A stretch of DNA of 64,000 bases from Adhaeribacter swui (lineage in GTDB: Bacteria > Bacteroidota > Bacteroidia > Cytophagales > Hymenobacteraceae): assembly GCF_014217805.1 (NCBI RefSeq), contig NZ_CP055156.1, positions 620,001-684,000 on the forward strand, in the 5' to 3' direction. Numbering within the stretch: position 1 is the first letter of the stretch; every line of letters starts with the position of its first letter. Shown here in pieces: positions 1,409 to 45,609 of this stretch. Both the position numbers and the translations under genes were made by a program. Below the pieces are notes generated by a model, which worked only from the letters and a program-made list of their open reading frames with translations, did no database searches and had not been told where the DNA came from.

Positions 1409-3913
1409 TTAAACCTCCGCCGCAATTGGCAACACGGGTTCGCTAATTTCCAGATTCAGCGGGTGGGCTACTTTTTCCTGCAGTAAGGCAATTTGCAGCA
1501 CATCCGGAGCTTTATCTACAAAATGAATATTTAAATCTTTAATGTATTCGGCCGGAATTTCGTTAATATCTTTCCGGTTTTTCTGGCACAGAATTACATC
1601 TTTAATACCGGCCCGTTTGGCGGCTAATATTTTTTCTTTAATGCCCCCCACCGGTAATACTTTGCCGCGCAAGGTAATTTCACCGGTCATGGCCAAATGC
1701 GACCGTACTTTGCGTTGCGTAAATACCGAGGCGATGGAAGTAAAAATAGCAATCCCCGCCGATGGTCCATCTTTCGGCACTGCTCCTTCCGGAAAGTGAA
1801 TGTGCAAATCGTATTGGTCAAAAATCCGGTAATCAATTTTTAAATCTGCCGCGTGCGCCTTTAAATAAGACAGCGCCGTTACAGCCGATTCCTTCATTAC
1901 ATCGCCCAACTGCCCCGATAAGGTTAATTTGCCTTTACCCCGGCTCAGAATCGATTCGATAAACAAGATATCGCCGCCTACCGAAGTCCAGGCCAGGCCG
2001 GTAACTACGCCGGCGGTGTCGTTATCCTGGTAAATTTCTTTATCAAAAATTTCGGGTCCCAGAATTCTTACTACATCCGTCGGGTCGATTACTTTTTTAA
2101 ATTCTTCCTCCAGGGCTTTGGCTTTGGCAATGTTCCGGGCAACCGCACCAATTTTGCGTTCCAGGCTACGTACGCCCGACTCGCGGGTATAATCTTCAAT
2201 TATTTTTTGAATAGCGGCCGCAGAGAAAACAACGTCTTTGGGTTCTAAACCGTGCTCGGCTTTTTGTTTAGGCACCAAATGCTTTTTAGCAATTTCGGTT
2301 TTTTCTTCGATGGTATAACCGGTAATATCAATAATTTCCATGCGGTCGCGCAGGGCCGGCTGAATGGTATCCAGGGAATTAGCCGTAGCAATAAATAAAA
2401 CCTTCGATAAGTCGTATTCCACCTCCAGGTAATTATCTACGAACGTACTATTTTGCTCCGGATCCAGTACTTCCAACAAAGCCGAAGAAGGATCGCCGCG
2501 AAAATCGGAGCTAATTTTATCAATTTCGTCGAGTACGATAACCGGGTTGGCGGAACCAATTTTTTTAATCTGGCTCACAATTTTGCCCGGCATAGCCCCC
2601 ACATAGGTTTTGCGGTGCCCCCGGATTTCGGCTTCGTCGCGTACGCCACCCAGTGACATCCTGACATATTTGCGGCCCAACGATTTGGCTATTGAACGAC
2701 CTAACGAAGTTTTACCTACGCCGGGAGGCCCAAACAAGCACAAAATGGGCGCTTTCATATCGTTTTTCAGCTTTAAAACCGCTAAATACTCGATTATGCG
2801 CTCTTTTACTTTTTCCAGGCCGTAATGGTCGGCATCCAGAATTTTCTTGGTTCTTTTTAAATTAAAGTTATCCTTCGTGTATTCGCCCCAAGGCAAATCC
2901 AACAGAAACTCGACGTAGTTCACCGAAACCGGGTACTCTGCCGCTGCCGGGTTTAAACGGGCTAATTTTTCAATTTCTTTATTAAAATGCTTTGCTACTG
3001 CTTCCGGCCATTTTTTCTTTTTGGCTGCTTCCCGGAAACGCTCAATTTCCTGATCTGGCCCATCGAAACCCAACTCATCCTGCAAAACTTTTATTTGCTG
3101 CCGCAAAAAGTAATCCCGCTGTTGTTGGTCAATATCGGTGTGTACTTTGGTATGAATCTCGTGCTTGATTTCCAGCATCTGGATCTCGCGCAACATGAGT
3201 TGCAGCAAGGTAGTACCGCGTTCTACGCCATCGTTAATCTCCAGCAGCGATTGCTTTTGCTGCACTTCCACGTTAATGTTCGACGATAAGAAATGCGTTA
3301 AGAAGCTCGGCGAATCAATGTTATCCAGGGCCACCTGGGCTTCCTGCGGAATCTCCGGATTGAGTTTCAGCATTTTAGCCGCCGCATCTTTCAACGACTG
3401 TACCAAGGCTTTTACTTCTTTGCTGGGCTTGGCCGGGAAAGACTCCTGGCAGTAACTAACCGTGGCCGTTAAATACGGAATTTCCCGCACTACTTCTTTA
3501 ATCTCAAACCGGGTCTGGCCTTGAATAATAATGGTAGTATTACCATCGGGCAACACCAACATTTTTAAAATTTTAGCCATGGTACCCACCGTGTACAAAT
3601 CATCGCGGGTAGGGTCGTCGCTTTTGGTATTTTTCTGAGCAATTACGCCCAGTATTTTGTTTCCCCGGTAAGCTTTGCGCACCAACCGGATTGATTTTTT
3701 GCGGGTAACGGTAATGGGCAGCACTACTCCCGGAAATAAAACGGTATTGCGTACCGGCAAAATAGGCAGCAACTCCGGCGCCTTTTTTCCAGCTAATTCG
3801 TCATGTTCAGGTTCAGTAGTAATAATCGAGATCATATCTTCCGGGTCGTTGCTCCGATTAGCAGCGAGTAACAACTCCTGAAGATTAGTGGCGTTATAGT
3901 CCATAGTGTACAA
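1409..3913 (-). CDS. lon: Lon protease (endopeptidase La)
   Basis: 834 residues, full length for Lon. Order: N-terminal substrate-binding LON domain (about 48-250), coiled helical region, AAA+ module with Walker A GPPGVGKT near residue 395 and Walker [10 protein letters not shown], then the serine-lysine protease domain. The catalytic serine is in [10 protein letters not shown] (Ser718 by coordinate) and the expected lysine partner is in GGIKEK (about residue 761). Lon is the ATP-dependent cytoplasmic protease that removes misfolded and regulatory proteins. Start is the first ATG; a second Met is three residues later (MYTMDYN). It is divergent from the porE-like gene over a 380-bp gap. Confidence 0.98.
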
Positions 3914-37606: not shown

Positions 37607-38593
37607 TTGGTTAAACGCTTTTATGTCGATCAGTACGTAGACCGCATTCTGGCCCAGGACCGGGTAGTTTTAAGTCGCGCTATTACTTTAGTAGAAAGCA
37701 AATTACCCTCCGACCAGGAACTGGCCCAGCAAGTAATTAACCGCTTACTCCCTTACTCGGGCAAATCCATCCGGGTGGGCATTACAGGCTCGCCCGGTGT
37801 GGGCAAAAGCACGTTTATCGAAGTGTTGGGCAATTACATTATTCAAAAATTTAAAAAAAAGTTAGCGGTACTGGCCATTGATCCCAGCAGCCAACGGTCA
37901 GGCGGCAGTATTTTAGGCGATAAAACCCGCATGGAGGTACTGGCTACCCAGCCTAATGCCTATATCCGGCCTTCGCCGGCGGGCGCCTCGTTGGGCGGCG
38001 TGGCGCGCTATACTCGCGAGAGTATCATTTTGTGCGAGGCTGCCGGGTTTGAAGTTATTTTTATTGAAACTGTAGGCGTAGGCCAGTCCGAAACTGCCGT
38101 TCATAGTTTAACTGATTTTTTCCTGTTACTCATGTTGGCAGGCGCCGGCGACGAATTACAAGGCTTGAAAAAAGGCATTATGGAAATGACCGATGCGCTG
38201 GTAATTACGAAAGCTGATGGTTCTAATAAAGAGAAAGCCCAGGCTGCCCAACAAGAATACCAGAACGCTTTGCATTTATTTCCGGCGGCAGCTTCGGGCT
38301 GGCTGGTTCCGGTGATGCTAAGTTCTGCCCTGGAACAAACCGGTGTCGCCGAAGTGTGGGAACAAATACAACAATACGAGACCCAAACCAGGCAAACTGG
38401 TTATTGGGAGCAAAAACGAAATAATCAGCAACTGTACTGGTTACACCAAACCATTAGGCAAACCCTGGAAGAACGATTTTTTGCCAACCCCGCCGTAGCG
38501 CAGCTTTTACCCGAAAAAGAACAAGCCGTACTGGCCGGAAAGTTATCGGCTTTTACCGCCGCCACTGATTTACTCAATTTAGGTTATAAGTAG
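37607..38593 (+). CDS. meaB: MeaB, GTPase chaperone of methylmalonyl-CoA mutase
   Basis: 328 residues. Walker A GSPGVGKST lies near residue 60, with the G3 region ETVGVGQSE and guanine specificity motif ITKADG. MeaB gates cofactor B12 delivery to MutB and protects the enzyme. The start is TTG at 37607, since no ATG lies between the preceding in-frame stop at 37589 and the conserved RFYVDQYVDRILAQDR block. It is about 8 kb from mutB and so not in the same operon. Confidence 0.95.
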   Translation: MVKRFYVDQYVDRILAQDRVVLSRAITLVESKLPSDQELAQQVINRLLPYSGKSIRVGITGSPGVGKSTFIEVLGNYIIQKFKKKLAVLAIDPSSQRSGGSILGDKTRMEVLATQPNAYIRPSPAGASLGGVARYTRESIILCEAAGFEVIFIETVGVGQSETAVHSLTDFFLLLMLAGAGDELQGLKKGIMEMTDALVITKADGSNKEKAQAAQQEYQNALHLFPAAASGWLVPVMLSSALEQTGVAEVWEQIQQYETQTRQTGYWEQKRNNQQLYWLHQTIRQTLEERFFANPAVAQLLPEKEQAVLAGKLSAFTAATDLLNLGYK

Positions 38594-38726
38594 TAGGTTT
38601 TCGGTTGTAAGCGATAGGTATTAGGTTGTTATTCAAGCTTTTTACTTGTGCAAAATTTCTGGATAAAGGAAATTTTTAAAAATTTAAAATTATGTAAGCT
38701 TCCTGCTATGCACGCTGCTAAGTGTT

Positions 38727-39035
38727 ATGCGTAGCGTTCGCGTCAGCGGTCACTACGCATTTTTCGAATAGCTATATCTCTGATTGGCGTATTAGGGAGT
38801 CTTGGGTAAACGCCAATCAGAGATTGACCGCACACAAAGTACTTAGAGCGCTTCGCTAACTCTAAGTACAACGAAGGATATATCTGCTTCCAGTTTAACT
38901 CAGTATAACTGGGAGCTTTTGATAGTGGCCAGTTTTCAACTGGCCGGAAGTTGAAAACATCCCTTTATAATCACCCACCAGCTACAAGCTGGCGGGAGGT
39001 GTGCTTCTTCAGGGGCAATAATGTTATTACTCCTG
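38727..39035. repeat. Array of successive inverted repeats, possible ncRNA or repeat element
   Basis: Hairpins by position: 38727-38760 (8-bp stem, ATGCGTAG), 38776-38824 (15-bp perfect stem, 19-base loop), 38839-38869 (10-bp, GTACTTAGAG), 38886-38916 (10-bp with one G-U), 38927-38945 (8-bp GGCCAGTT, 3-base loop), 38974-38996 (10-bp with one mismatch) and 39010-39035 (imperfect). Spacers are short, and this stretch is less AT-rich than other gaps. No terminal repeats typical of an IS were identified, and nothing here is recognised as a known RNA family. Confidence 0.5.
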
Positions 39036-39085
39036 GCAAACAGCTTTGTTTTTAAGTCAAATACAAAACAGCTTCTAAATTCTGA

Positions 39086-39147
39086 AAATTAAAAAAATAG
39101 CCTTTCCGGGTAAGGGACTACCCAGAAAGGCTATTTTTTAATTTTCT
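39086..39147. terminator. Bidirectional terminator between meaB region and folB
   Basis: The arms AAAATAGCCTTTC and GAAAGGCTATTTT pair perfectly, with CGGGTA/TACCC extending inward across one mismatch and A/T-rich sequence extending outward. T runs follow on both strands. It lies just downstream of folB (minus) and at the end of the hairpin region. Confidence 0.8.
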
Positions 39148-39154
39148 AATCTAA

Positions 39155-39514
39155 TTACCGCTTTTCTTTTAAGGTAACTTTGGCTTTGTGGCAAATGCCT
39201 CCGAGCGGCGGATTAAATTTATAAATGTTTATTTTTACCTGTTTTAAATGCGGAAACTTTTGAAAGACCCGGTCGATAATCCGGTGGCCTAAATGCTCCA
39301 GCAAACGGGCCGGCACTTTCATTTCTTCGTATACCAGCTTGTATAATAACTCGTAATTTACCGTTTTGGGCAACTCATCGGTTTGCGCCGCAGCTTGTAA
39401 ATCGGTGTATATAAATAAATCTACGCCGTACTTATTCCCGATTTTCTGCTCTTCGTCGTAGTAACCGTGAAAAGCAAAAAACTCCATGCCTTCCAGGGCA
39501 ATGCGTCCTTGCAT
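39155..39514 (-). CDS. folB: Dihydroneopterin aldolase
   Basis: 119 residues, full length. Motifs: IALEGMEFFAFHGYYDEEQKIGNKYGVDLFIY, containing the Glu/His-Gly-Tyr active region, then YKLVYEEM, LLEHLGHRIIDRVFQ and INIYKFNPPLGG. It produces 6-hydroxymethyl-dihydropterin for folate synthesis. It is 15 bases from the DivIVA-like gene on the same strand, so they probably share a transcript. Confidence 0.95.
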   Translation of the reverse strand: MQGRIALEGMEFFAFHGYYDEEQKIGNKYGVDLFIYTDLQAAAQTDELPKTVNYELLYKLVYEEMKVPARLLEHLGHRIIDRVFQKFPHLKQVKINIYKFNPPLGGICHKAKVTLKEKR

Positions 39515-45291: not shown

Positions 45292-45609
45292 ATTAAGTTA
45301 ATGTTATGCGGCCAAAAATACAGAATTCTGCTGTATTTGCTTTACGTGTTTTACGGATTTATTAAAGCCAGATTAAAATTTAGAAAATTTAAAACAGTTT
45401 AAAACTTCCTTAACAATCTTCTGATTATCACCTCCGGACCCGGTTATTTTTTTAAAATATTTCAACAAAGATGTTCCTGCGCAGCTATAAACGCTAAAAA
45501 CCCATTTTAAATTTTCCCGGAAACTTTATTATTACTGGCGCAGCAACCGAATTATTAATTTTTACGGTAACGTAAAAGCTAGTAAACCGCAACAAACCAA
45601 TAGTTATTT
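45292..45609. other. 318-bp intergenic region
   Basis: AT-rich gap between the aminotransferase promoter side and the cupin gene end. Apart from an AT-rich stretch near 45380-45400 and TTTTTTTAAAATATTT near 45450, nothing was recognised. Confidence 0.4.

What the first reader, a model, noticed from the sequence alone, without database searches (positions are those of the whole stretch)
38727..39035. Seven hairpins in 310 bases with no gene: candidate structured RNA or decayed repeat element
Seen directly: successive inverted repeats, including a perfect 15-bp stem (38776-38790 with 38810-38824), a 10-bp stem (38839-38869) and others, with short spacers, in a gap that is otherwise free of genes. 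A lone terminator does not explain this. By inference it could be a non-coding RNA, a REP/MITE-like element or remains of an IS200/IS605-type element (which have hairpin ends). No transposase remains are nearby.
Basis: partly seen in the sequence, partly recalled or inferred. Interest (0 to 1): 0.6.

Follow-up and report, generated by a model that had tools for sequence, protein, structure and literature searches.

The report
Two miniature hairpin transposons, side by side
The hairpins are two small, non-coding mobile-DNA elements that occur in a dozen or more copies each around this bacterium's genome; close relatives carry the transposase gene sitting inside one of them, while here the elements look like orphaned leftovers.

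Summary
The hairpins are real (folding z -8.2 as DNA, -7.8 as RNA) but are neither a lone structured RNA nor IS200 remains. The stretch is two adjacent dispersed repeats: family A (38724-38872, flush ends GTT...AAC) and family B (about 38884-38998). The listed rows give at least 22 A and 15 B places in the own genome. Both share one plan: outer hairpin, inner palindrome, loop, inner palindrome, outer hairpin, with compensatory stem changes.

In other Adhaeribacter genomes and in Rufibacter the A halves flank a REP-associated tyrosine transposase (RAYT) gene lying in the A loop: 7 of 9 distinct A-type loci have clear halves on both sides, 2 on one side. B elements lie just downstream of a second RAYT type in two congeners. 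A protein search of the window genome found no A-type RAYT, and its B-type RAYT is cut to 39 codons.

Best reading: miniature non-autonomous elements once mobilised in trans by RAYTs, now orphaned. RAYT-flanking hairpins with dispersed copies are published for Bacteroidetes (PMC6006769), so this is a new member of a known kind, with a cleanly resolved anatomy.

The parts
38724..38872 (+). Family A miniature element, flush ends GTT...AAC (strand is a convention; the element is nearly palindromic)
   Evidence: Model R2 match 146.5 bits on +, 81.6 on -; at least 22 places in own genome; sharp ends
38727..38760 (+). A, left outer hairpin
   Evidence: Inverted repeat I7; two-sided changes at 3 pairs of this helix across 17 copies
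38770..38790 (+). A, left inner palindrome (family consensus GCCAATCTCTGATTGGC; its outer arm is decayed in this copy)
   Evidence: Alignment A3
38810..38828 (+). A, right inner palindrome (consensus GCCAATCAGAGATTGGC); also pairs with the left one as the perfect 15-bp stem
   Evidence: I4; alignment A3
38839..38869 (+). A, right outer hairpin, followed by the terminal AC of ...TACAAC
   Evidence: I12; two-sided changes at 2 pairs
38884..38998 (+). Family B miniature element; end points judged from column conservation and less sharp than those of A
   Evidence: Model R1 match 38885-38997, 126 bits; at least 15 places in own genome; end columns
38886..38916 (+). B, left outer hairpin
   Evidence: I8; two-sided changes at 4 pairs
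38927..38945 (+). B, inner palindrome 1 (GGCCAGTTTTCAACTGGCC)
   Evidence: I19
38946..38962 (+). B, inner palindrome 2 (family consensus GGAAGTTGAAAACTTCC; one mismatch here)
   Evidence: Fold
38974..38996 (+). B, right outer hairpin
   Evidence: I13
37607..38593 (+). Context, not part of the elements: meaB
   Evidence: NF006958 and PF03308 above cut-offs
39155..39514 (-). Context, not part of the elements: folB
   Evidence: TIGR00525 and PF02152 above cut-offs

Best explanation
Window 38724-38998 holds two adjacent miniature, non-coding mobile elements of the RAYT (REP-associated tyrosine transposase) world. Each is built as outer hairpin - inner palindrome - short loop - inner palindrome - outer hairpin. 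Family A is what remains when the RAYT gene is absent from between its two ends: in relatives a RAYT gene occupies the loop. The likely mechanism is that a HUH single-tyrosine transposase recognises the end hairpins when the DNA is single-stranded, cuts near the foot, and moves the element through a single-stranded intermediate into intergenic DNA without a target-site duplication. In this genome the elements seem to lack a matching intact transposase (no A-type gene found, B-type gene truncated), so they are probably orphaned, slowly decaying copies. Shown: repetition, sharp ends of A, shared plan, compensatory changes, the gene between A halves in relatives, truncation of the B-type gene here, no sign of target duplications. 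Inferred: the enzyme's action on these ends, the single-stranded route, present inactivity, and that B belongs to the B-type RAYT.
For: Multi-copy and dispersed. Sharp A ends: outermost base 2.25 bits, next column outside 0.04 bits, in 18 copies. Two-sided stem changes, A 6 pairs, B 9 pairs, covariation scores about twice the shuffled mean, 0 of 500 shuffles as high. RAYT gene between A halves: L113 left half 1297-1363, open frame 1369-1959, right half 1966-2030; 7 of 9 distinct A-type RAYT loci have clear A halves on both sides, L111 a clear left and a doubtful right one, L119/L164 a clear right and a decayed left one. Linked A-, B- and C-type proteins exceed the NF047646 cut-off. B-model matches directly downstream of B-type RAYTs in G002 (start 354495, gene ending about 354472) and G003, where it is the only B place found. 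Inverted similarity of RAYT flanks in 48 of 70 Bacteroidota loci against 0 of 70 and 2 of 140 controls. No target duplication, 18 A and 13 B copies. Own B-type RAYT truncated.
Against: No experiment shows that these RAYTs cut or move these ends. Base-exact empty sites could not be obtained. The link of B to its RAYT is weaker than that of A: B copies lie beside, not around, the gene, and the end before the truncated own gene matches B over only 23 nt at 91%. The right end of L111 and left end of L119/L164 are not clean A halves. Covariation shuffles do not control for common descent. The own genome keeps one intact C-type RAYT (L011) and a divergent RAYT-like gene (L130), which might act on A or B, so 'orphaned' is not proven.
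Confidence: 0.85

Rival explanations
1. A structured non-coding or cis-regulatory RNA of the meaB-folB gap (sRNA, attenuator), with the hairpins selected as RNA.
For: Strong fold as RNA, z -7.8; compensatory changes; downstream of genes, hence probably read through.
Against: Two separate repeat families found in many unrelated gaps; no Rfam match at gathering score, and the ten permissive matches are far below gathering scores (best 30.3 bits against 245); orientation relative to transcription mixed, A 3 of 7, B 4 of 8; the neighbouring gap of G005, G001, G002 and G007 has neither element.
Confidence: 0.04
2. MITEs of a DDE transposase: short non-autonomous elements with terminal inverted repeats and target-site duplications.
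For: Size, inverted symmetry, sharp ends, dispersed copies.
Against: No target duplication at k = 2-9 in 18 A and 13 B copies; only 3 bp of flush unpaired terminal repeat in A; both halves found around a Y1 HUH gene instead.
Confidence: 0.03
3. The elements have been taken into host use, for example as mRNA 3'-end stabilisers or barriers between convergent genes; their mobile origin would then be history only.
For: None of 29 own copies lies between divergent genes; A between convergent genes in 10 of 17 (crude ORF caller). PMC3733652 (abstract) says REPs lie mostly downstream of genes and many are plausibly transcribed.
Against: Avoiding promoters is enough to explain the bias; occupancy differs between species; the folB end has its own strong terminator at about 39092-39139. 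This adds to the best explanation rather than replacing it.
Confidence: 0.15

Closest known systems
Atypical secondary structures flanking TnpAREP subclass 2.6 genes (= RAYT group 5), mostly Bacteroidetes (PMC6006769; section 12 read in full, passages of others)
   Same: Flank a RAYT gene, lack the GT[AG]G foot, have copies elsewhere in the genome, Bacteroidetes; HUH-to-tyrosine spacing of our RAYTs is 81-84 in the eight shown and median 82 over the 69 of 98 measurable, as the median 82 stated for 2.6 (paper passage).
   Different: The paper text seen gives no sequences for these structures; its supplementary table could not be read. Here complete gene-less elements with both ends, and loss of the gene, are seen.
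TIRtrons / TIRYT with long or double palindromic terminal inverted repeats (PMC3733652; section 16 in full, passages)
   Same: RAYT-like gene between long inverted repeats that are partly self-complementary and form repeated families, also as dimers.
   Different: No GGGGWSAS motif was looked for here; PMC6006769 assigns most TIRYTs to subclass 2.1, not 2.6. The examples named in the text seen are from other phyla.
GTAG-type REP, REPIN and BIME (E. coli, Pseudomonas)
   Same: Imperfect hairpin with an unpaired 5' foot, two in inverted order, intergenic, tied to a RAYT.
   Different: Foot is GTTA, not GT[AG]G; each end has two hairpins; about 145 nt as a unit; tens rather than hundreds of copies.
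IS200/IS605 insertion sequences
   Same: Y1 HUH enzyme superfamily, hairpin ends, no target duplication.
   Different: The linked proteins fall below the IS200 cut-off (20-25 bits against 55) and above the RAYT one (93-99 against 80); the own genome's true IS200-type genes (L009, L010) have other hairpins.

Membership tests
RAYT-associated repeats of Bacteroidetes (subclass 2.6 / group 5) | Repeat flanks a TnpAREP/RAYT gene | tested here: met
   A: 7 of 9 distinct loci both sides, 2 one side. B: beside, not around, B-type RAYT genes in G002 and G003
RAYT-associated repeats of Bacteroidetes (subclass 2.6 / group 5) | Copies elsewhere in the genome | tested here: met
RAYT-associated repeats of Bacteroidetes (subclass 2.6 / group 5) | Atypical hairpin without GT[AG]G foot | tested here: met
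   A foot is GTTA in 17 of 18 copies, GCTA in one
RAYT-associated repeats of Bacteroidetes (subclass 2.6 / group 5) | Protein is a RAYT | tested here: met
   NF047646 95.2, 98.9, 93.0 bits for A, B, C types, cut-off 80
RAYT-associated repeats of Bacteroidetes (subclass 2.6 / group 5) | Protein falls in MCL subclass 2.6 | not testable with these tools
   Reference set not held; HUH-Y spacing 81-84 in the eight shown agrees with 2.6 but is only one trait
RAYT-associated repeats of Bacteroidetes (subclass 2.6 / group 5) | Mobilised by the RAYT | not testable with these tools
   Needs biochemistry or a mobility assay
GTAG REP / REPIN | GTAG or GTGG foot | tested here: not met
GTAG REP / REPIN | Two hairpin units in inverted order | tested here: met
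IS200/IS605 insertion sequence | Linked TnpA is of the IS200 type | tested here: not met
   25, 22.9 and 20.4 bits, cut-off 55
DDE-type MITE | Target-site duplication | tested here: not met
   No excess over mispaired flanks, k = 2-9
Known RNA family (Rfam 15) | Match at gathering score | tested here: not met
   0 matches in the window

The most novel reading that the evidence does not exclude
The four-hairpin plan is a distinct, widespread class of RAYT substrate in Bacteroidota: each end carries two modules, an outer hairpin matched to the RAYT and an inner palindrome that can be swapped, and gene-plus-ends or ends alone can move as one unit, unlike GTAG REPtrons. Hints: A, B and C of this genus share the plan; G050, of another family of the order, has A's right outer-hairpin core identical over 25 nt beside a different inner palindrome; three more distant RAYT loci share only a 19-nt outer-hairpin apex with A; 48 of 70 RAYT loci have inverted-similar flanks. 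Against unit movement: A-type RAYT genes mostly sit in neighbourhoods shared between loci of different species.
Probability: 0.25. Interest if true: 0.55.

Novelty: new member of a known kind. Interest (0 to 1): 0.35.

Why it matters
It replaces 'possible RNA' by a specific, testable pair: RAYT genes and their matching DNA ends in soil and environmental bacteria, in the RAYT group for which the papers seen here report only 'atypical' structures found by hand. Having the gene inside the element, the gene-less copies, and a genome that has lost or truncated the genes, all in one genus, gives a natural series for asking how RAYT-repeat systems arise, stay matched to their enzyme, and die.

Tried and rejected
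Structured RNA: Rfam at gathering score gave 0 matches; the permissive scan gave 10, all far below gathering scores and mostly on the terminator.

DDE MITE: target-duplication test negative.

Exact empty site: the syntenic gaps of two further own A copies were compared, one with G006, G003 and G005, one with G006 (the search for the second found nothing in G003 and G005). A is absent from these gaps, but the DNA is too diverged for a base-exact junction.

Strand of action from G-T against A-C mismatches in the outer stems, each end read inward: A 12 to 6 cells, B 26 to 4, but 27 of the 38 G-T cells come from three pairs fixed in many copies; not used.

First flank-pairing control was poor because loci of one genus share ends (13 of 70 above its 99% level); replaced by distal flanks of the same loci.

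Folding of RAYT ends (46 of 50 with two or more hairpins) has no control and is not counted as evidence.

Whether A-type RAYT genes hop: of 10 loci compared, neighbouring genes match within three groups of loci and three loci match none; so mostly inherited in place, movement unproven.

Local against long-range pairing of the A inner palindromes: the pair counts do not decide.

A plasmid-record search with meaB gave no match.

Full report
OBSERVATION. The stretch 38724-39001 folds far better than dinucleotide shuffles, z -8.2 with DNA and -7.8 with RNA parameters, 0 of 200 shuffles as good in each. It lies between the convergent genes meaB (37607-38593, +) and folB (39155-39514, -), both above curated cut-offs. 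A separate strong terminator-like hairpin stands at about 39092-39139.

NOT ONE THING BUT TWO REPEATS. A search of the own genome (G000, 6.23 Mb) with 38700-39060 gave 44 matches (40 of 53 candidates scored). Except for one weak match at query 266-357 they fall into two classes, query about 24-179 and about 178-302. Alignment of fetched copies shows family A, mostly 145-150 nt, beginning GTT and ending AAC, and family B, about 115 nt. Covariance models made from 17 A and 13 B copies find A in 7 of 8 and B in 8 of 8 genus genomes. In the own genome the listed rows amount to 22 distinct A places (2 of them weak, E about 1e-5) and 15 B places (1 weak, E 1e-4); only 150 of 973 and 150 of 2647 first-look candidates were scored and the A list is cut, so these are lower bounds. 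Within the window each occurs once (one more B row, at 45338, has E 0.27). Among the places listed, only in the window do A and B lie side by side.

ANATOMY. Both families have the plan outer hairpin - inner palindrome - loop - inner palindrome - outer hairpin. The counts do not decide between these foldings. Stems are kept through two-sided changes: A 6 pairs, score 0.109 (shuffled 0.057, 0 of 500 as high); B 9 pairs, score 0.111 (shuffled 0.055, 0 of 500). One measure, further pair types, is not raised in A (124 of 500 shuffles as high), and the shuffles do not control for common descent. The ends of A are sharp: the outermost base is invariant on the left (2.25 bits) and the next column outside has 0.04 bits; on the right the drop is from 1.94 to 0.10 (18 copies). 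B's ends are less sharp. No target duplication is seen for 18 A or 13 B copies at k = 2-9.

THE TRANSPOSASE LINK. Pfam Y1_Tnp finds 3 places in the own genome and 27 in the 8 genus genomes together, own included. Around several of the longer, RAYT-type genes lie A halves in inverted order. In L113 (G003) the left half is 1297-1363, the open frame 1369-1959, the right half 1966-2030. A scan of the collection of 84,980 species genomes with the A-type proteins gave 84 relatives, of which 79 distinct loci were kept. G001 and G002 have contig lengths equal to records of Adhaeribacter aerolatus and A. rhizoryzae there, so the window genome, of the same genus, is taken to be an Adhaeribacter (inference). 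Of 98 RAYT rows compared with L113 (79, 19 from the genus), 12 are 72-100% identical; three of these are second views of one place, leaving 9 distinct loci. 7 of 9 have clear A halves on both sides; L111 has a clear left half and only a 43-nt, 79% trace on the right; L119/L164 has a clear right half and a decayed left one. A tenth, broken locus (L205) has both. The next proteins in the ranking are at most 57% identical. Among the other rows L120 has an A copy near a C-type gene, and L157, L183 and L190 share only a 19-nt outer-hairpin apex with A. A-, B- and C-type proteins exceed the curated cut-off of NF047646, REP-associated tyrosine transposase, and stay below that of IS200. A profile of 16 genus proteins also matches the solved TnpAREP 4er8 (E 2e-4) and IS200-type transposases.

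B, C AND OTHERS. B-model matches lie just downstream of B-type RAYTs in G002 (354495-354616, gene ending about 354472) and G003 (3665119-3665214). A third family, C, with the same plan, precedes the one intact RAYT of this group in the own genome (L011/L048) and lies by C-type RAYTs in G002, G003, G005 and G006. G050, of another family in the order, has elements of the same plan whose right outer hairpin shares 25 bases with A (identical in 6 of 13 matches) but whose inner palindromes differ, and a broken RAYT with complete elements of yet another sequence on both sides. Over 70 Bacteroidota RAYT loci with enough flank (9 of 79 left out), inverted similarity between upstream and downstream flanks reaches score 40 in 48, against 0 of 70 distal and 2 of 140 mixed controls. 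So 22 of 70 show no such ends.

WHY PROBABLY ORPHANED. A protein search of the own genome with the A-type RAYT gives only the C-type gene (52%), a divergent RAYT-like gene (36%; 69.5 bits, below the NF047646 cut-off of 80) and a 33-residue piece. That piece is the start of a B-type RAYT, 39 codons long, preceded by a B-like hairpin (23 nt at 91%); compared with its syntenic congener L101 the own sequence then continues with what lies 1.6 kb further on. The most similar own copies are 90.5% (A, 136 pairs) and 93.8% (B, 78 pairs) identical. This suggests, but does not prove, that A and B no longer move here; the C-type RAYT could still act on them.

CONTEXT. By a crude ORF caller, of 29 own copies none lies between divergent genes; A is between convergent genes in 10 of 17, B in 3 of 12, with one B called inside a short doubtful ORF. 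Orientation relative to co-oriented genes is mixed (A 3 of 7, B 4 of 8). The meaB-folB gap of G006 also has an A element, without B; in G005, G001, G002 and G007 the gap has neither, and in G003 and G004 meaB is not found in the stretch fetched. At two other own A sites G006 lacks A, and at one of them G003 carries a different palindrome pair of a type seen beside other RAYTs.

LITERATURE. PMC6006769 (section 12 in full, passages elsewhere) reports subclass 2.6 TnpAREP, mostly Bacteroidetes, flanked by atypical structures with copies elsewhere. PMC3733652 (section 16 in full, passages) describes TIR-flanked RAYT-like genes and double palindromic TIRs. PMC8266576 (abstract, introduction, one discussion section) says that E. 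[quoted passage not shown] the single-strand route given here is thus by analogy. Searches for RAYT or REPIN with Bacteroidetes or Bacteroidota, for TIRYT, for MITE with Mucilaginibacter, and for Adhaeribacter with repeat or transposase listed no paper whose title or abstract start describes these elements; 15 of 64 papers were listed for Adhaeribacter with repeat. Subscription journals and supplements are not covered.

VERDICT. Real, more than chance, and explained in kind: two miniature RAYT-type elements, most likely orphaned. New sequences and a clear anatomy within a known kind.

Noticed in passing
window 39086-39145: Long near-perfect inverted repeat (27-nt arms, 89%) with T and A runs, a strong terminator-like hairpin at the convergent end of folB; separate from the two elements.
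   Followed up: partly
window 39010-39035: Imperfect palindrome after B that is not part of either repeated family.
   Followed up: no
L048:2241-2405 (G000:C3 about 1878240-1878405): Third four-hairpin family, C, just upstream of the one intact RAYT of its kind in the own genome.
   Followed up: partly
L046:2756-3175 and L047 (about 2620-3030, minus strand): Two IS200-type genes, one open and one with stops inside, with small hairpins such as CCTCCATCTGAAGATGGAGGCAAT beside them.
   Followed up: no
L130:1373-2035: Divergent RAYT-like gene bounded by CTCGTTTGTG..CACAAACGAG palindromes in the own genome.
   Followed up: partly
L122 (G006), meaB-folB gap: The congener's gap holds an extra unrelated reading frame besides an A element; it looks like an HNH-type gene by eye only.
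   Followed up: no
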